Source: Brassica napus
Taxonomy: Eukaryota; Streptophyta; Magnoliopsida; Brassicales; Brassicaceae
NCBI RefSeq assembly: GCF_020379485.1
Contig: NC_063452.1
Span: forward strand, 39,558,208-39,622,207
Length of the DNA stretch: 64,000 nucleotides
Direction of reading: 5' to 3'
Shown here: positions 1,398 to 64,000 of the stretch, piece after piece
How the letters are laid out: each line of letters starts with the position of its first letter
Numbering within the stretch: position 1 is the stretch's first letter
The notes under the pieces: generated by a model
What the model saw: the letters and a program-made list of their open reading frames with translations, nothing else
Told to the model about the DNA's origin: nothing
Database searches by the model: none
Program-made: the position numbers and the translations under genes

Positions 1398-2226
1398 GAA
1401 GAATGAGAAACTGATCTTCAGTGACAGTCACCCGATCCACCTTTTCTTCTTGATTTCCTTGCTGCTTGTTTTTCAACTTCCAGCAATCCTTCTTCATGTG
1501 CCCTTTCTTGTGACAGAAATAGCACTCCATGTTAGCAAATTTATTAGATTTGCTTTTGCTCCTGTTCTTGTCTCTCTTGGGATCTCTACTCGAACTCCTC
1601 CCCTTTGACTCAGTAACAAAGACATCTGAACGCGAACTGCTAGCATTCGACAGTCTTCTTGCTTCCTCATTAAGAACAATGTTCTTTACTGAATCCATCG
1701 AAATAACACCTTCCGACGCGGAGTTACAAAGAGACATCCTGAAAACCTCCCAAAAATCCGGTAAAGTACCGAGAAACCACAGACCGTGAATCTCATCATC
1801 AAACTTAATGCCCATATCAGACAGCTTGTTGAGTAATCCCTGAAACGCATTTAAGTGATCCGTCATCGGAGTTCCCTCCTGATACCTTAGCTCAATCAAC
1901 TTCTTGATCATGTACATCTTGTTGTTTCCGGTCTTCCTAGCATACAACTGCTCCAGCTTCTTCCACAAAGAACGAGCATCCGTCTCAGTCTCAATATGAT
2001 GCAAAACATTATCATCTACCCACTGCCTTATCAGCCCACACACTTGGCGATGGAGCAGCTTCCACTCTTCATCCGTCTTCTTCTCAGGTTTCTTCTCCTC
2101 GAAGACTGGAACATGGAATTCTTTAACAAAGAGCAGATCCTCCATCTTGCCCTTCCATAGATGATAGTTGGCACCATTCAAGCTTATCATCCTGCCCATA
2201 TTCTCCATCATTCTCACAAGCAACAA
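1345..2226 (-). pseudogene. copia gag polyprotein (UBN2-type) with zinc knuckle
   Basis: This 293-residue frame begins near the primer-binding site, as gag does in copia elements. It contains the W-K-G-K-M-E-D-L type N-terminal gag motif, the L-W-K-K-L-E-Q-L-Y and L-N-A-F-Q-G-L-L segments of the gag UBN2-like domain (roughly residues 20-180), a basic Ser/Arg-rich stretch, and one CCHC zinc knuckle C-Y-F-C-H-K-K-G-H-M-K-K-D-C near residue 235. The frame ends at 1345 because of a one-base shift just before the protease. Gag packages the element RNA in cytoplasmic particles. Confidence 0.9.
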
Positions 2227-2280: not shown

Positions 2281-3179
2281 TGTTGGGGAAAAATATGGAC
2301 ACACGACACGAGCGCAGCGGAATGTGATCGATCGTATTCCCCTGACCTTGTGTGAACCTGTGAGGAAAATACTTCGACGATAGCAGGATATAGTATAAGC
2401 AATAACTAAATGAGACACACTTTTTACGTGGAAAACCTCCTCGATGTGAGAAGGAAAAACCACGGGACCGTAGTCCACTCAACAATCCACTATATAAATG
2501 TATGTGAGTACAAACACGTCCTACCTGTTCAACAACCTGAACAGAACAGAGACTCAAGCTACAAAGAGCTACCTCCAACACAAGAACAACAACAACAAGA
2601 GAGTAACACAAAGCTTCAAAACCAGCAGCAACCAAACGACCTCAGATCACAAGGATTACGGAAACCAGAGACTAATCCCGCTGTACAAATCCAAGATACA
2701 CTAGTCAACAACACCTCTTCCAAATTTCAGCTCAATCAGAGAAGATCTCACCGTCGGATTTACCAAACACTCAAGACAGCACTGCTGAAGAACTGTGACG
2801 ACCAGCTTCACTAAACCCCAGACAACAGAAGATCCAACCATTAAAATCTAAATCCCTTCGTGAACCTTTAACCCACTGACTGAAGAAGCTTTCCACAAAA
2901 TATCAGTCCGATCAGGTTCCGTTTGACCCTCCAAATCTGCCTTGACAAACCCAGACGAAATTCTGCCTCCTTCCCTCTTTTCTCTCTTTTGTTTTTTTGA
3001 TTCTTGTAAGTCTCTGCATAAAAATTAGGACAAGAGACAATATATATGTGTCTCACTAACCCTAAGAACCTCCATGGCCCAATACTAATCTCATGGACTA
3101 ATACCAATGACCCAACTTTCAAGTTTGGTTATCACTAACCAAATCCAATGGGTTTTCTCCATCTAGAAGGAATCCAACA
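2281..3179 (-). repeat. 5' LTR of copia element 1 (899 bp)
   Basis: The inner edge is fixed by the primer-binding site. The plus-strand sequence begins TGTTGGGG and the other edge reads ATCCAACA at 3172-3179, so the LTR has inverted TGTTGG/CCAACA ends. It should contain the promoter and poly(A) signals of the element. The partner LTR lies outside the window, so the outer boundary rests only on the terminal TG...CA match. Several open frames inside it on both strands are not genes. Confidence 0.75.
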
Positions 3180-3891
3180 GATAATGGAATGCCCATGGAT
3201 CCACGACATGAGAGAAATATCCACCACCTTTCATCAGTAGTCAAGTTTTCTACTCTATGGGACATAAAGTACATTACCATGAAAACTCTCGTTCTCGCTA
3301 CCAAACGACTCTAAAAGGAAAGACTACAGTTTTATAGCAATTACAGAAGGCACTACTGGTGCTTCGTACCATATGTTGATCAGATCCATGATATACCACT
3401 GTGTGAAGGTGACACTAGTAAAAACCTGAAAGTAGGCTCCAAACTTCCCACTGCTCTAAGACAGAGGCTAATAGGTTTATTTCGGTCAAAATCAAACTGT
3501 TTTGTGTGATCCCATATAGACTTTCCCGGTATTGACCCAAAGTTATTAATGCACAAACTACAAGACGAAGCACATCATCAACCAACAAGGCAAAAATGCT
3601 CATCTTCGCTCCGAAGTTAGATCAAAGTCTAGTTAACATTATAACAAAATAATACTAATCCCAACAGAATCTCTTTTTACAATTGTGAATTACTTATTTT
3701 GGAGGATATCACTAAATTACTTTGCTAACCAGTTCCCATGAAGTTAATGGTACAATTGAAAAAGTTGAAATGATAAAATCTATTGAAATATTGACAGGGA
3801 CCCAAGGGAGATACTACAACTTGCGAAAACAAAGAATACTATGTAAAATGATGCTCAAATGATGATCTCCGTTCTTGAACGAGTAGATAAT
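3180..3891. other. intergenic, no gene seen
   Basis: About 710 bases between the copia LTR and the next retroelement. No ORF with recognisable protein similarity was found on either strand. The last five bases (ATAAT, 3887-3891) are the target duplication of the element that follows. Confidence 0.6.
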
Positions 3892-57709: not shown

Positions 57710-58265
57710 ATCCGGGAAATTTAGGGTATCCGGATCCGTCGGATCCGTGGATTTAATATCCGGATCCGGATTCGTAGTTTCCGGATATCCGAGTTTCGGA
57801 TATCCGTCTCGATATTCTATTATCCGCGGATATCCGGATCCGGATCCGGATCCGTCAAAATAATTAAAAATAATTTTTTTAACAAAAAATATTAATTTTT
57901 TTAATATAATACATAAATTAAATATTTATAAATATATTTATATATGTTTATAATATTGTAAAAACTAAAATATAATATTATAAGATTAATTCATGTATAA
58001 ATATTAATATATCAAATATAAATATTAATAAAATTTAAAAATTTAATGTATTTTAAAAATACGGATCCGGATCCGGATATCCGGACCTAAAAATTAAGAT
58101 ATCCGGATCCGGATTCGGTTTGCACGGATCCAAGATTTTACTACCCGGATTTGGATCCGGGCACCCCGGATTTGGATCCGGGCACCCCGGATATCCTATT
58201 TTCGGAGCGGATCCGGAGCGGATCTCGGATCGAATCCGGATCTCGGATAATAAGTCTCAGGCCTA
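57710..58265. mobile_element. GGATCCGGATATCC-rich element (hAT-like?)
   Basis: Two clusters of the palindromic motif ATCCGGATCC / GGATATCC (57718-57860 and 58058-58240) flank an AT-rich core. The right cluster contains two copies of a 25-bp unit GGATTTGGATCCGGGCACCC plus CGGAT-type flank. The right edge read on the minus strand is TAGGCCTGAGACTTATTATCC, similar to ends of non-autonomous hAT elements; the left edge is not clear. Confidence 0.45.
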
Positions 58266-58589
58266 ACGTTATATACTATCTTTTGAACGAAGAAACGAGA
58301 ACGTTCTGCATTGTTACCGGTAATAAACGAGTTGGAACTTGGAACAAGTGTCCGTTACGTGCTCAACAGTAATAATTACCCATTTTCTCGCAGGGAAGTT
58401 TACTCAAATATACAATATTTTAGGACAATTGACTAGAACCATATAGATCTTTTTTTTATTACTGGCATTTTTTAAATACCAAGCGTGCTCTTTTTTACGT
58501 TATGAGAAAAAACATATTTACAAGAATGCCATTACTTTTCGCTGCCACGTAAGCAAAAACCTGGCGCCATGTAGGAATTATGTTTCGTG

Positions 58590-59225
58590 TTTTCATTAAG
58601 CCAGCCGTAAATCGCTACATATATCGTTACGGCTGATTTATTTCTACGTGTCAGCTGAATTAATAAAATCGGCTGACTAAAGAGTCACAAGGCTGATTTA
58701 AGAACATAAGTCAGCCGGCCTGTACGGCTGAATTACAAAAATGTGGCTGATTTATGAGATAACGGCTAACTTACAGACAACGGTTACGGCTGACTTATAC
58801 ATCGGGGGTTTGTTTTATGGAAAATTTTCCTGAGTTGTAGTTAAGAAACGGCTGAGTTATGTTTCCCCGACCGAGTTAATGAATATCGACTGACTGAGTT
58901 ACATAATTTACGGCTGACTAATGTGATGTTGTTACGGCTGAGTTTATGTTAAATCGCCTGTAATAGGATGGATTAACAGTAAACTCAGCTCATTTACGGC
59001 TGACTTATTAGCGAAAGATTAATTACTAGAATATCATTCGTTTGACGGCTGATCTATGTGACGATACGGCTGATTTATTGTTTTTCATCCTAATTACGGT
59101 TGATTACGGATCAAAAGATTAATTACTGAAATAGTATCCACGGTTCGGCTGACTTACATTGTAAATCAGAGCTGATTTACGTAGGCTGATTTATGTATTC
59201 GTTTGTCGGCTGATTAACCGATTTT
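58590..59225. repeat. CGGCTGA motif array, block 1
   Basis: About 23 copies of the motif (core CGGCTGA followed by S/T-TTA), nearly all in the same orientation and 15-45 bp apart, for instance near 58629, 58668, 58723, 58782, 58848, 58910, 58933, 58995, 59044, 59066, 59145 and 59206. Spacer sequences are unrelated to each other, so this is not an ordinary tandem satellite. Confidence 0.85.
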
Positions 59226-59373
59226 CCATGTCATCCGCCATGTCATCAACTCGGATTTGCCATGTCACTGCTAACGAACTACTTTACAACTACGTTTGTC
59301 TGTCTGTTCATCTTCTTTATCTATCTATATATCTATCTTCTTCATCTTATTCTTCATCTTTCTCCGAGATCTT

Positions 59374-59610
59374 ATGGATCCGGTAATTATTGTTTCTGGT
59401 AACTGGATTAAGAAAAACAGATATGTATTCAACGCCGACAGTATAGGGTGTAGAGTTCTGCATTTAGATGAGAAAACAAAACATGAAGAATTCGCAAAGT
59501 CTGTACTCGATGATTACGGATTGAATGAATTGAGGCATCAGAAAACAATGGCGCACGACACTCCACCAGTTTACGGAGAACAATGATGACGAAATGAATC
59601 TTAATGACAG
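59374..59610 (+). pseudogene. shortened MULE transposase N-terminus (copy A)
   Basis: It starts M-D-P-V-I-I-V-S-G-N-W and matches copy B at 62597 for the first 50 or so residues (R-Y-V-F-N, L-H-L-D-E-K-T, L-D-D-Y-G-L-N). Relative to copy B, one stretch between L-R and K-T-M-A-H-D is missing. A second deletion joins T-P-P-V-Y directly to G-E-N-N-like sequence at a TTACGGAGAACAA microhomology, after which stops follow. The rest of the first exon is absent. Confidence 0.75.
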
Positions 59611-59639
59611 AGCAAGAGAGACGATGAACAGAGCACTAT

Positions 59640-60023
59640 CGTATGTTTTTGTATTAAGTTTTGGTTTTTGGGTTTTAATGTTTTGTATTACAGCAGGGTT
59701 TAGGGTTTTCTTGATTAGTATTACGGCTGAGGTATGGATTTTAATGTTTTTGTATTACGAGTGAGTTAAGGTTTTTTATGTTTCTGTGACACGGCTGAGT
59801 TTTGTTCTTAATGTTTTGTGTTACGGCTGAGTGGATGAGTTATGGATAAAATTCCCGCTCAAAAAACAAAACGTTGCAAAGCGAAACGTCGCGATAATAT
59901 AACTGTTCTCTGCCTATAAATAATGTGTCTACTCTAACAGTACAACTTTAAACTCTTTATTTTCCACAATTACTCTTTATCTCTATTTTACACAATTACT
60001 CTCTATCACCCCTCTCAAAGCAA
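59640..60023. repeat. motif-bearing spacer between copy A and the first F-box relic
   Basis: Three or four copies of the CGGCTGAG motif (near 59726, 59797, 59826) in 200 bp, then a leader with CCTATAAATAATG at 59910-59922, a probable TATA box about 105 bp before the F-box ATG. Confidence 0.6.
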
Positions 60024-60714
60024 ATGGGATATTTCCCGATTCTTGAAATGCCTGAAGAAATTCAGGCGTTGGTGGTTGAACATGTGGCCGGTAACTCCTT
60101 CCAAGATCTCTATGGCCTTAGAGCATCGTGCATTGTTGATGAAGGCGTTAGCAGATCGGCATAGTGTATTCCATTTTTACGATGTATTATCCGTTCCCTG
60201 GGGAATCAATATGCCTGCTGAGTTGTTGAAAACTTGCTACACTGAGAGAAATCCAAGCACACTTTATATAAAGGGTGTTCAGTTTGTCTTTACATATAAC
60301 CTTAAAGAAGAAGGAGTTGCTCTCATGAAGCTTGCAGCGGATGCAGGATATGAGCGTGCTGTGTATACACACGCAATGACTCGGAAAATCTTTTGGGATG
60401 ATGATGAGGGGTATTTTGCTCGTTTTCCAAGGGAATACGTTATCAGGATCGGGAAATTAGTGCGATCTGTGAAATGGGGATGGGGTTTGTGGCACGGTGA
60501 CGAGTTCCGTGCAAAGTGGGCCGAGTTCATCTCAGCGGTTGTTCTGTCGTTCTGCAGTTGCCAATGTGCTCCTCTTTTGAGGCGAGAATGTCCCTGCTTG
60601 TGCCACATTGATACCACTAAGGATGACAACATGTGTTACCGCTGTTTCTGGATCAAAGAGGGTTGTTCTTCCGTGACTTTGAACCAATTAGTTTGATTAG
60701 GAACACAATGAAGT
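60024..60714 (+). pseudogene. F-box protein gene of the At2g35280-like type, copy 1
   Basis: It starts M-G-Y-F-P-I-L with the F-box core L/M-P-E-E-I-Q-A-L-V-V-E and L-Y-G-L-R-A-S-C. One extra base near 60131-60141 relative to copy 2 shifts the frame. The remainder is read at 60145-60696 with the family C-terminal motifs Y-I-K-G-V-Q, L-M-K-L-A-A-D-A-G-Y-E-R-A, K-I-F-W-D-D and R-C-F-W-I-K-E. A small deletion near 60658 changes the last residues. F-box proteins of this family would act as substrate adaptors of SCF ubiquitin ligases. Two frameshifts make this copy a pseudogene. Confidence 0.8.
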
Positions 60715-60804
60715 GGTGAAGATGCATTGTATCAGAAACCTATTTTTTTTTGTTCTTTGCTATGCCATTATGTATGTAGAACAACATATTAATGTATGGG
60801 TTTA

Positions 60805-61020
60805 TGGTAATGTTTTCGGCTGAGTTTTCGTTTAATTACGGCTGAGTTATCATTTAATTATGCCTAAGTTATCGTTAATTTACGGTTGAATTAACGTTTA
60901 ATTATGTCTGAGATATCGTTATTTTACGGCTGAGTTATCGTTTAACTATGTCTGAGTTATCGATAATTTATTGGCTGAGTTATCGTTTAATTATGTCTGA
61001 GTTATCGTTAATTTCTGCCT
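60805..61020. repeat. CGGCTGAGTTA array, block 2 (about 30-bp periodic)
   Basis: Here the motif is organised as a degenerate tandem repeat of about 29-31 bp: GGCTGAGTTATCGTTTAATT alternating with TGTCTGAGTTATCGTTAATT, about seven units. Confidence 0.85.
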
Positions 61021-61033
61021 TATCAAACTTTGT

Positions 61034-61294
61034 AAATACTAAAGTATTATCGTCTCCATGTTATAAAGGCCTCGATATTAGTTCTGAGCCGTATTTTCAA
61101 CACTTTTGAAGCGCCATAATATATCAACACGGTCAAATCAAGAAAGACGAAACGTCCCATTATTATAAGGGACGTTCAATATTATAAAAAAGTATTACCG
61201 TGAATATTAAATCAGTTTTTAAATACTAAAGTATTATCGTCTCGATGTTACAAATGTCTCGATATTAGTTCTGAGCCGTATTTTCCACACTTTT
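61034..61294. repeat. 74-bp direct repeat with AAAGTATTATCGTCTC
   Basis: 61034-61107 and 61221-61294 are near-identical: AAATACTAAAGTATTATCGT then CTCSATGTTA... to TTCTGAGCCGTATTTTC and CACTTTT. A third, shorter AAAGTATTACCGTCTCGAT is at 61362-61380 and AAGTATTACCG also occurs at 61190. TTCTGAGCCGT carries the CGGCTGA motif in reverse. Confidence 0.85.
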
Positions 61295-61464
61295 CCCGTA
61301 TTTTCCATACTCAGCCGTTTCATTAATATTAACGGCTGAGGTATATTTTGAGTTAAATAATAAAGTATTACCGTCTCGATCTCTATGAAGGCGTCGATGT
61401 TATATTAACCAACATGGCTGAGTTATCTCAAATATCATTGCTTAGTTATATTAACGTTACATTA

Positions 61465-62157
61465 ATGGATTATTTCCTGATACTTGAATTGCCTGAAGAG
61501 ATTCAGGCGTTAGTGGTTGAACTTGTGGCCGGTAACTCCTTCACAGATCTCTATGGCCTAAGAGCATCGTGCAAGTCGATGAAGGCGTTAGCAGAGCGGA
61601 GCAGGGTAAACCATTTTTACGATGTGTTCTCCGTTCCCATGAGACTCAATATGCCTCCTGAGTTGTTTAAAATTTGCTACGCATAGAGAAATCCAAGCAC
61701 ACTTTATATGAAGGGTGTACAATTTTTCTTCACATTTAACCTTCAGGAAGAAGGACTTGCTTTCATGAAGCTTGCAGCGGATGAAGGATATGAGCGTGCT
61801 GTGTATACATACGCAATGACTAGAAAAAAATTTTGGGGTGATGAGGAGTATTTTGCTCATTTTACAAGGGAATCAGTTGACAGGATCCAGAAACTAGTTC
61901 GATCTCTAAAATGGGCATGGGGTTTGTCGCACGGTGACAAGTTTCGGGCAAAGAGGGACGATTTCATTTCAACCGTTGTTCTTTCGTTCTATAGTTGCCA
62001 ATGTGTTCATGTTTTGAAGCGAGATTGGGTCTTGTGGTACATTGAAAACAGTAAGGGTGACAAAATGCGTAACCGTTGTTTCTGGATCAAAGAGTTGGGG
62101 CTCTTCTTCCGTGAGTTTGAACCGATGAGTGTGATTAGGGACACAAGGGAATGGTGA
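61465..62157 (+). pseudogene. F-box protein gene of the At2g35280-like type, copy 2
   Basis: One frame from ATG 61465 (matching the copy 1 start) to TGA 62155-62157, interrupted by a single TAG at 61684-61686 where copy 1 has a Glu codon. About 230 codons. F-box L-P-E-E-I-Q-A-L-V-V-E-L-V at residues 9-21, then N-P-S-T-L-Y-M-K-G-V-Q, A-A-D-E-G-Y-E-R-A, F-W-G-D-E-E-Y-F and R-C-F-W-I-K-E-L-G. The upstream in-frame ATG at 61414 lies inside a motif copy and is unlikely to be the start. Both copies lie between two transposase starts, so the F-box gene was either captured by the MULE or caught in its tandem duplication. Confidence 0.82.
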
Positions 62158-62204
62158 AGATGTATTCTATCAGAATCTTTTCTCTTTTTATGTTCTTTGC
62201 TATG

Positions 62205-62435
62205 ACATTATTACGGCTGGTTTATATTTTACATTATGGCTGGGTTGTCTTTTAATTACGACTAATTTTTTTTTATGGCCGGGTTCTCTTCAATTACGGC
62301 TGAGTTTTAATTTCATAATGACTGAGTTATTTTGTTGGAGTGTTATTTAATTACAACATGGCTGAGTTAATTAAATACGTGACAGCCGAGTTATTGTTAC
62401 TTAAAGGCTGAGATAATGTTAACTTTTTGGCTGAG
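62205..62435. repeat. CGGCTGA motif array, block 3
   Basis: About nine copies, including ACGGCTGGTTTA, ATGGCTGGGTT, ACGGCTGAGTTTT and ATGGCTGAGTTAA, directly behind F-box copy 2 and ahead of the second transposase leader. Confidence 0.8.
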
Positions 62436-62596
62436 TTTTGTAAAAAAATCCAAGATACAGACAAGGAATCCGCCATGTCATCAACTTGGATTTGCCATGT
62501 CATCACTAACGAACGAAATTTACAACTTGCTTTATGAGACTGTTCATGTTCTTCTTCATCTTAGTTATCTATCGTCTTCATCTTTCTCAGTTGGTT

Positions 62597-64000
62597 ATGG
62601 ACCCGGTAGTTATTGTTTCCGGTAACTGGATTAAGAAAAACAGATATGTATTTAACGTCGACAGTAGAGGGTGTAGAGTTCTTCATTTAGATGAAAAAAC
62701 AACACATGAAGATTTCGCAAAGTCTGTTCTCAATGATTATGGATTGAATGATTTGAGGGATCATATTCAGTATAGCTACATGTTCTCGAATAAAGCATTG
62801 AAAACAATGGCGCACGACACTCCACCAGTTTACGTGTCCAATACTCGACAATTGCAAGGTTTTCTAAGCCTAAAGAAAATCGAAAAACTACGTCTCTGTG
62901 TGGAGATTACGGAGAACAAGGATGAAAGAGCAAGAGAGAAGAGTAAAACATTTTTCAGATTTAGCTCAGAAGTAGAAGCTTCAGAAGTTGAGTCCAGAGA
63001 CGAAAATTACAGTGGGAGTTACGATGGTTTCAGTTTGGAGAAGGAACAAGAGGACAATGAGAATGACTGCTCTAGTAATGTGGAAGGAGAAAAACACGAC
63101 GTAGTCGGAGAAGATGAAATATGCAAAGAAAACGAAGAAGATGAGGAATTTGAAAGCCGATTTGATATGTTCGACGATTCGGACGGTGCGTCATCTGAAG
63201 ATGATAACTTCAGCTCATACGGTGAGTCTCCTACATAAGACGAAGATTCACCAACGCTACCTCCCAAGAAGAGATATCAGAACTTCTCGATGAGCGGATC
63301 TAAAGGGAATCTGGAGGTTCTAAGGTTGGAGATGTCGTCGATAGACATTGCGGTTGGTCAACGATACGAGAGTAAAGACGATTTGGAGAGACGACTGAAA
63401 CTTCTTACAGTGAGGCATCAATTTGATTTTGATGTAGAAAAATCAACCCCGACATCATACGTTGTTAAGTGTTGGGTTGATGGATGTCTCTGGAGAGTTC
63501 ATGCTTCTACCCAAGGAGAATCCCCAGCGTTTTATGTTCGTATTTACGATTCGAAGCATACATGTTCTGTAACTGAGCGTTCTAATCGATCTCGACAAGC
63601 AACACCAGATATTTTAGGAGAGTTGTACAAGAACTTTCTCGGCAACGTTGGTCCAGCCGTTCGCCCTACGAGCGTCGGAATAGCTATCACTAAGCAGTTT
63701 GGTATACAGTTAATTACTTAACGATACGTCTGAGTAATATCAAATGTAGCGGCTAACATATTTATACAATGCGGTTGGGTTACTATAATATTAGATGCGG
63801 CTGAGTTATAATAAAGATAGGGTTGAGTTATTTTTACGTTGTGGTTGTCTTAATTATTTGATGCGGCTGAGTTATGAGCATCGTTTTTTCATGTGAACAG
63901 ATGGATTATTGGAAATCACACCGGACGCTGAAATTCGCAAGGGAAATCGATGAGGGAACACCTGAGTGTGGGTTTGAAAGCTTGCCTTCTTACTTATACA
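62597..64000 (+). pseudogene. MULE transposase (MuDR/VANDAL type), first exons, copy B
   Basis: The first exon runs from ATG 62597 to about 63709, then exon 2 from 63901 (behind ATGTGAACAG) to beyond the window. The N-terminus V-V-I-V-S-G-N-W and D-F-A-K-S-V-L-N-D-Y-G-L form a PB1-like region (residues 1-60). An acidic linker (E-D-E-E-F-E-S-R-F) follows, and after an in-frame TAA at 63236-63238 the same frame continues with the MuDR N-terminal DNA-binding domain: V-G-Q-R-Y-E-S-K, then H-Q-F-D-F-D-V-E-K-S, C-W-V-D-G-C-L-W-R-V and S-K-H-T-C-S-V-T (zinc-binding Cys/Cys/His pattern). Exon 2 begins M-D-Y-W-K-S-H-R. The intron donor is not a clean GT. The catalytic core lies to the right of the window. 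Confidence 0.85.
63722..63900 (+). repeat. transposase intron carrying the CGGCTGAGTTA motif
   Basis: About seven motif copies (for example GCGGCTGAGTTAT at about 63796 and 63863, GTCTGAGTAAT near 63728, GGGTTGAGTTAT near 63822) in 180 bp between two exons of the transposase. Exons on both sides have none. Confidence 0.8.

What the first reader, a model, noticed from the sequence alone, without database searches (positions are those of the whole stretch)
58590..63900. Motif array (CGGCTGASTTA) confined to non-coding parts of a VANDAL-like MULE: candidate anti-silencing recognition system
More than fifty copies by eye of one short motif, core CGGCTGA followed by GTTA, CTTA or TTTA. They fill the leader (58590-59225), the spacers, the block behind each F-box relic and even the transposase intron (63722-63900). 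The exons of the transposase (62597-63709) and the bodies of the F-box relics contain none that I can see. Spacing varies and the spacers are unrelated, so slippage alone does not explain it. Known precedent: VANC proteins of Arabidopsis VANDAL elements bind short motifs (for VANC21 reported as YAGTATTAY) dispersed in non-coding DNA of their own family and cause demethylation. The motif here contains a CG, unlike that one. Inference: a lineage-specific VANC-type or transposase-binding code.
Basis: partly seen in the sequence, partly recalled or inferred. Interest (0 to 1): 0.9.

Follow-up and report, generated by a model that had tools for sequence, protein, structure and literature searches.

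The report
Transposon family marked by short motif
A plant DNA transposon family carries dozens of copies of one short DNA word in its non-coding parts, together with a gene of a kind known to bind such words and undo silencing, so it is probably one more self-recognition system of that kind, with an extra F-box-like gene on board.

Summary
58590-63900 has 9 exact, 25 (<=1 mismatch) and 51 (<=2) copies of CGGCTGASTTA, against 0.005, 0.08 and 1.5 in shuffled sequence; none lies in the in-window transposase exon. The element is larger than the window: 58393-74203, 15.8 kb. Its right part carries the predicted partner, a minus-strand DUF1985...Ulp1 gene, the kind that a 2026 review calls KIU-type VANC.

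The motif is family-wide: 3406 exact genome copies against 179 for the reversed word. Around the Ulp1 exon of 30 copies there are 362 motifs (<=1 mismatch) in 90 kb of flanks and 0 in 17.1 kb of exon. Two deletion derivatives without element genes keep 30 and 31 motifs. Polarity per compartment is conserved.

Best reading: binding sites of the element's own KIU-type VANC. Against it: no binding or methylation data, no site-level purifying selection found, and no DUF287 domain seen near the motif.

Most unusual: an F-box-like/TPR gene is standard cargo, without stops in 21 of 21 young copies; the window's "relics" are decayed copies of it.

The parts
58384..58392 (.). left target-site duplication TTTCTCGCA (right copy TTTCTCGAA just after 74203, outside the window)
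   Evidence: 8 of 9 bases equal, read by eye
58393..64000 (+). part of the 15,811-bp element inside the window; it continues to 74203 (L009:10203 equivalent, L009/L010)
   Evidence: ends found by comparison with other copies
58590..59225 (+). leader motif array: 5 exact, 13 at <=1, 22 at <=2 mismatches
59374..59574 (+). duplicated fragment of the transposase N-terminus, 73% identical to the later copy
59669..59832 (+). 33/34-bp tandem array containing the motif
60024..60696 (+). F-box-like/TPR_27 relic 1 (decayed copy of the cargo gene)
60697..61464 (+). motif block behind relic 1, with 22/44-bp tandem array at about 60818-61014
61465..62157 (+). F-box-like/TPR_27 relic 2 (one stop); TPR_27 1e-6 in 61687-62154
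62158..62596 (+). motif block behind relic 2, before the transposase
62597..63705 (+). transposase exon 1 (DBD_Tnp_Mut in 63239-63718), stop at 63236-63238; no motif at <=2 mismatches
   Evidence: exon end by eye
63706..63900 (+). transposase intron 1: 2 exact motifs, 6 at <=2 mismatches
   Evidence: splice sites by eye
63901..64000 (+). transposase exon 2, continuing into L009 (MULE/Transposase_mut and SWIM parts there); the minus-strand DUF1985...Ulp1 gene follows at L009 9409 down to about 6004

Best explanation
CGGCTGASTTA is the recognition word of a VANC-type anti-silencing system. The element is a VANDAL-like MULE. Its minus-strand DUF1985...Ulp1 gene, a KIU-type VANC, would encode a protein that reads dense, same-polarity, roughly helically spaced copies of the motif in the non-coding DNA of its own family, removes silencing marks there, and so lets the transposase and partner genes be transcribed; non-autonomous copies that keep only the arrays would profit too. 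Shown here: the array, its family specificity, its near-confinement to non-coding DNA, conserved polarity, preferred spacing, the DUF1985-Ulp1 gene, motif-rich deletion derivatives. Inferred: that this protein binds the motif, that it demethylates, and that this helps the element.
For: DUF1985 and Peptidase_C48 in one minus-strand gene region of the same element; His93, Asp107/110, Gln167 and Cys174 columns of the Ulp1 domain invariant in 10 of 10 aligned copies (their catalytic role is recalled). 3406 exact genome matches against 179 for the reversed word; word pairs 21-23 bp apart 1152 against 0. 362 motifs in 90 kb around 30 Ulp1 exons, 0 in the exons. On C1 below 18.19 Mb 4 of 4 listed transposase loci of the >=84% clade lie in motif clusters, 0 of 2 of the 63-72% clade (capped lists). 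Derivatives L014 and L015 without element genes keep 30 and 31 motifs. Spacing modes 22-24 and 31-33 bp, none at 15-18. The layout matches what Hosaka 2017 reports for VANC21 and VANC6: dense, same-orientation, partly tandem motifs in introns, intergenic and terminal DNA. The Ulp1 part evolves faster than the transposase (dN/dS 0.66-0.90 against 0.245 between near subfamilies), as reported for VANC against VANA.
Against: No binding, methylation or expression data. DUF287 not found with the motif. Motif columns are not more conserved than spacers among 30 paralogous introns (0.862 against 0.902; exon codon positions show no constraint either, so that test lacks power) and not significantly so among five leaders in the unbiased test (p 0.05-0.54). 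L061, 3.3 kb of a relative with a DUF1985 exon, has no array, so such a gene does not always come with one nearby. The periodicity is not clean: the window element alone peaks at 8 bp and distinct distances give weaker values.
Confidence: 0.66

Rival explanations
1. The motif is a binding site of the transposase or of another element protein, needed for synapsis and cutting like the subterminal repeats of other DNA transposons; any anti-silencing is a by-product, as named for Spm TnpA and MURA.
For: Motifs are dense next to both ends and point inward from both sides; deletion derivatives keep them; the transposase has a MuDR-type DNA-binding domain; PMC10706983 (passages) lists TnpA and MURA among anti-silencing transposon proteins.
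Against: Motifs fill introns and intergenic blocks far from the ends, and one intron of the transposase carries them in the opposite polarity; subterminal sites alone would not need that.
Confidence: 0.16
2. The arrays are neutral: a short word spread by tandem duplication and gene conversion within non-coding DNA, where nothing opposes it, and then decays.
For: 22-, 33/34- and 44-bp tandem arrays; no site-level conservation; many copies carry mismatches.
Against: The shared block is only about 15 bp between unrelated spacers; the word is the same in subfamilies whose Ulp1 domains are 58-68% identical; polarity is conserved per compartment.
Confidence: 0.12
3. The motif is a site of a host transcription factor that the element uses for expression.
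For: Motifs upstream of the transposase and of the Ulp1 gene are mostly in the sense direction. The word holds TGAC/TGAG cores as some plant factors bind (recalled, not tested).
Against: About 90 of the first 100 listed genome places fall in clusters of this family (my reading); introns and 3' intergenic blocks are dense too.
Confidence: 0.05

Closest known systems
KIU-carrying VANDAL elements (Kaonashi: VANC genes with an Ulp1 domain)
   Same: MULE with weak terminal repeats, 9-bp target duplications, DUF1985/Ulp1 gene, motif in non-coding DNA (this report; PMC13317346 and PMC6117577, passages)
   Different: Another word (the words of KIU systems are in Sasaki 2022, which is not held, so I could not compare); F-box-like gene as cargo; not tested for function
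VANC21 / VANDAL21 (Hiun) and VANC6 / VANDAL6
   Same: Short motif in dense same-orientation arrays in introns, intergenic and terminal DNA, partly tandem, rare in exons (PMC5735166, parts 1-3 of 6 read)
   Different: Words YAGTATTAY and AGTTGTCC/AGTTGTAC there, CGGCTGASTTA here; those VANCs have DUF1985 and DUF287, here DUF1985 and Ulp1
En/Spm TnpA and MURA
   Same: Element-encoded proteins named as anti-silencing (PMC10706983, passages); TnpA binds a short repeated element motif (recalled)
   Different: Those sites are near the ends (recalled); here they fill the non-coding DNA of the whole element

Membership tests
MULE / VANDAL-like | MURA-type transposase (MuDR DNA-binding, MULE, SWIM) | tested here: met
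   DBD_Tnp_Mut 2.6e-12, Transposase_mut 8e-6 and SWIM 4e-9 in the window copy; MULE 5.7e-23 in copy L012
MULE / VANDAL-like | 9-bp target-site duplication | tested here: met
   9 of 9 in L012/L013 and L015, 8 of 9 in the window copy; none clear for L014
MULE / VANDAL-like | lacking or short degenerate terminal inverted repeats | tested here: met
   imperfect ends GGGAAGTTTACTAGAATGTTACA / GAGAAAATTACTAGAATGTTACA in L012/L013, weaker in the window copy; definition from PMC6446971 passage
MULE / VANDAL-like | transposase falls in the VANDAL clade of a tree | not tested
   no named VANDAL sequences were at hand
VANC, VANC21/VANC6 type | DUF1985 domain | tested here: met
   PF09331 62.5 bits (cut-off 35.1) in L013:7614-8471; 30.8 bits, below cut-off, in the window copy
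VANC, VANC21/VANC6 type | DUF287 domain | tested here: not met
   146 genome matches, none of 4 on C1 below 18.19 Mb near a listed motif; 0 of 8 loci read with the motif; not found by Pfam in the ORFs scanned
KIU-type VANC | Ulp1 (Peptidase_C48) domain in the same gene as DUF1985 | tested here: met
   C48 2.1e-34 on the same strand downstream of DUF1985 in the window copy; same order in L012/L013 and L020/L021; the joined transcript is inferred, not observed
VANC systems | dense, same-orientation motif in non-coding DNA of the own family | tested here: met
VANC systems | protein binds the motif and causes loss of methylation | not testable with these tools
   needs DAP-seq/EMSA and bisulfite sequencing
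F-box protein (cargo gene) | F-box domain at the N-terminus | tested here: inconclusive
   PF00646 16.8 bits, below its cut-off of 20.5; among 35 relatives F-box-like matches 3 and F-box 2 at E<=0.05, TPR_27 31; three N-terminal helices at low confidence and no PDB match at E<=0.001; some relatives are named F-box domain-containing in public records

The most novel reading that the evidence does not exclude
The element is a three-part anti-silencing machine: motif arrays as address labels, a DUF1985-Ulp1 protein that reads them and strips SUMO from silencing factors there, and an element-encoded F-box-like protein that hands those factors to a ubiquitin ligase at the labelled copies. The F-box-like gene would then be a transposon counter-defence gene and not captured debris, acting like viral F-box silencing suppressors (polerovirus P0, recalled) but aimed only at its own family.
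Probability: 0.13. Interest if true: 0.87.

Novelty: new variant of a known kind. Interest (0 to 1): 0.62.

Why it matters
VANC systems are known in Arabidopsis; how their address words change and which other element proteins take part is open. Here is a large, recently active family (24 full-length transposase matches at 97-100% identity) in a genome that is probably Brassica napus (inference from a 100% named match, and genome size), with one sharply defined word, subfamilies at several levels of divergence, a relative with the same kind of gene but no array in the 3.3 kb read, and motif-only derivatives. Co-evolution of reader and word becomes directly testable, and the pair could serve as an address tag for targeted demethylation in a crop genus. 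The F-box-like gene as standard cargo adds a possible effector; the paper searches made showed no listing about it, which does not prove that it is unpublished.

Tried and rejected
Captured host F-box debris: rejected as a description of the family. 21 of 21 copies at >=98% identity have no stop, 21 of 21 have a transposase 0.5-6 kb upstream on the same strand, 18 of 21 have a convergent Ulp1 match within 15 kb (30 of the 150 listed Ulp1 places were typed in, so a lower bound). Its selection signal is weak: against more distant copies dN/dS is 0.51-0.75 in eight of nine comparisons and 1.5 in one 96-codon piece; one near-identical pair gives 1.06.

RNA-level signal (splicing or RNA binding): thought unlikely because transposase intron 2 carries the motif antisense, and never sense, in 6 of 6 copies; three of the six are near-identical B copies, so four are distinct.

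CpG-dependent signal: not needed. TG, AG and CA often stand for CG, and in L020 AG outnumbers CG 15 to 8.

Selection on motif sites: a first leader test looked positive (p 0.003-0.009), but columns were chosen by motif presence; the leave-one-out version removed it (p 0.05-0.54).

Genome-wide pair counts at other spacings: only 21-23 bp was answered. The fetched regions were used in its place: 35 of 38 regions, 3 near-identical B regions dropped, 29 of the 35 are paralogous Ulp1 loci, and L055 overlaps L022 and is counted twice.

The conserved minus-strand ORF L013:3968-4321 matches 30 unnamed or hypothetical proteins and no Pfam family above cut-off. The Ulp1 domain finds no PDB sequence at E<=0.001. 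The F-box-like model finds no PDB fold at E<=0.001, Sel1-repeat proteins among the best weak matches.

My own error: the 72-residue query 'fbA' was in the wrong frame (6 stops read as X). It served only to mask coding DNA, where it covers the same interval.
Full report
OBSERVATION. It is there. Both strands of 58590-63900 hold 9, 25 and 51 matches to CGGCTGASTTA at 0, <=1 and <=2 mismatches; 200 order-1 shuffles give means of 0.005, 0.08 and 1.48. The 58,392 bases of the window left of the element hold 0, 2 and 15. The word sits in the leader, the spacers and the intron; the transposase exon and relic 2 have none, relic 1 has one at two mismatches. A k-mer ranking that was not told the word puts parts of it on top in the window element and in copies L012/L013 and L020/L021. 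Anchored on GCTGA, the conserved block is about TTACGGCTGASTTAT and the flanks are near background.

THE ELEMENT. The right extension (L009, position = window position minus 64000) shows what the window cuts off. The element runs from 58393 to 74203 (15,811 bp) between TTTCTCGCA and TTTCTCGAA; copy L012/L013 is 14,968 bp between perfect TTAGAATTT copies. Order: left end, leader array, transposase, F-box-like/TPR_27 gene, intergenic arrays, then on the other strand a DUF1985...Ulp1 gene and the right end. The window copy has in addition a duplicated transposase fragment and two decayed F-box-like copies upstream of the transposase, and a third downstream. Its transposase frame is interrupted by stops; this is described only.

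FAMILY-WIDE. The exact word occurs 1689 + 1717 times in the 997-Mb genome, against 82 + 97 for the word read backwards. Pairs 21-23 bp apart occur 1152 times against 0. Of the first 100 listed places, about 90 fall in clusters of this family and 10 look isolated (my reading). On contig C1 below 18.19 Mb, 4 of 4 listed transposase loci of the >=84% clade lie in motif clusters and 0 of 2 of the 63-72% clade (130 of 3187 transposase candidates were scored). In 30 loci around the Ulp1 exon, the best 30 of 150 scored matches (of 1785 candidates), window copy included, there are 362 motifs (<=1 mismatch) in 90 kb of flank, coding or not, and 0 in 17.1 kb of exon. In the window element, coding DNA has 2 in 7,514 bp and non-coding DNA 55 in 8,297 bp. 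In the six other regions of that call, coding counts are 1-5 per region and non-coding counts 12-52; several of these regions are near-identical B copies. The B-type exceptions lie mainly in a Lys/Glu-rich exon with four hits in L012/L013, where the word codes Ala-Glu-Leu.

POLARITY AND SPACING. In the gene's frame all 181 motifs on the upstream side of the Ulp1 exon are sense and all 181 on the downstream side are antisense, in the same 30 loci. The leader (apart from two minus motifs), transposase intron 1 and the intergenic blocks are plus; transposase intron 2 is minus; the Ulp1 gene introns and right end are minus; the same in three elements of different subfamilies, except that L020 has no motif in intron 1. 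Intron 2 is minus in 6 of 6 copies. Spacing modes are 22-24 and 31-33 bp, with smaller ones at 26, 44-49 and 53-55 and none at 15-18. Over four elements a 10.5-10.75 bp periodicity is present (R 0.377 at 10.5, jitter-null mean 0.097), but the window element alone peaks at 8 bp, the values fall to 0.18-0.53 when each distance is counted once, and tandem copying makes pairs dependent. I call it suggestive.

DERIVATIVES AND CONTROLS. L014 (about 5.0 kb) and L015 (about 4.2 kb, flanked by TTAGTAATT) have both ends, only a remnant of 29-37 transposase residues, no ORF of 110 residues or more inside, and 30 and 31 motifs. L061, 3.3 kb of a compact relative with a DUF1985 exon (Ulp1 about 44% identical), has no array; only this one relative was read. 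Of eight DUF287 loci, none has the word and seven have other repeated words.

SELECTION. Transposase dN/dS between two subfamilies is 0.245; the Ulp1 part 0.66-0.90 among near subfamilies and 0.38-0.43 to the most distant. Motif columns are not more conserved than spacers among paralogues (0.862 against 0.902), and codon positions of the exon do not differ (0.926, 0.917, 0.917), so old copies decay neutrally and the test has no power. Between five leaders a first test was positive, the unbiased version was not. Site-level constraint is unproven.

F-BOX-LIKE CARGO. The protein (229-231 residues) has TPR_27 above cut-off and an F-box below cut-off. F-box support in relatives is thin (3 and 2 matches among 35) and the model is weak at the N-terminus. 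As cargo it is solid: 21 of 21 copies at >=98% identity have no stop, 21 of 21 have a transposase upstream, 21 of 24 young transposases have it downstream. In eight compact relatives the gap between transposase and Ulp1 matches is 0.8-1.4 kb, which leaves hardly room for it there. Named relatives among the 120 listed are from Brassica, Raphanus and Sinapis; the best, at 100%, is from Brassica napus, so the genome is probably that species (inference).

MECHANISM. Hosaka 2017 (PMC5735166, parts 1 to 3 of 6 and passages) shows that VANC21 and VANC6 recognise YAGTATTAY and AGTTGTCC/AGTTGTAC in dense non-coding arrays and cause demethylation. Sasaki 2023 (PMC10398659, parts 1 and 3 of 6 and passages) adds the contest with RdDM in these regions. 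The 2026 review PMC13317346 (passages) says that some VANC genes carry Ulp1 (KIU) and that KIU-carrying VANDALs recognise motifs and are hypomethylated, citing Sasaki 2022 in EMBO J, which is not held; I recall that abstract as stressing sequence, density and helical periodicity. The architecture here matches, so I read the word as the address of this element's DUF1985-Ulp1 protein (0.66). Transposase binding (0.16), neutral spread (0.12) and a host factor (0.05) remain.

VERDICT. Motif plus KIU-type gene make a new member of a known kind; the F-box-like gene as fixed cargo makes it a variant. Function is untested.

Noticed in passing
L013:1058-1483 and 1573-1860 (+): Copy L012/L013 carries two B3 DNA-binding domains (3e-10 and 1e-19) between the F-box-like gene and the Ulp1 gene; looks like captured host sequence.
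   Followed up: no
L013:3968-4321 (-); L009:4882-5229 (-): A small conserved minus-strand ORF (...WVHDWPTWRAIPDHFKERWF...) recurs between the F-box-like and Ulp1 genes; its 30 relatives, where named, are Brassica proteins without a function. Possible extra element gene.
   Followed up: partly
L013:6-299 (-); L009:3479-3697 (-): Small GRF zinc-finger ORF (PF06839 1.4e-7) in the B copy; the window copy has what looks like a remnant.
   Followed up: no
L013:5701-6861 (-); L021 about 2700-3500 (-): Lys/Glu-rich repeat part of the Ulp1 gene has Ala-Glu-Leu repeats whose DNA resembles the motif; Hosaka 2017 notes tandem peptide repeats in VANC proteins.
   Followed up: partly
G000 contigs C1, C38, C96, C116, C159, C183, C211 and others: A young subfamily: 16 transposase matches at 100% with identical score and 13 F-box-like genes with the same top score, at different places, which points to a recent burst.
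   Followed up: partly
L061 (C38:13245060-13248359): Compact relative family with DUF1985 and Ulp1 genes close to the transposase, no F-box-like gene between them, no motif array in the part read.
   Followed up: partly
L023-L030: DUF287 loci share other repeated words such as GGATATAA, AGTTATAC and CTGGGTAA; candidate address words of other VANC systems in the same genome.
   Followed up: no
window 57735-58240: GGATCCGGATATCCGG-rich stretch just left of the element with short tandem repeats of 11-21 bp.
   Followed up: no
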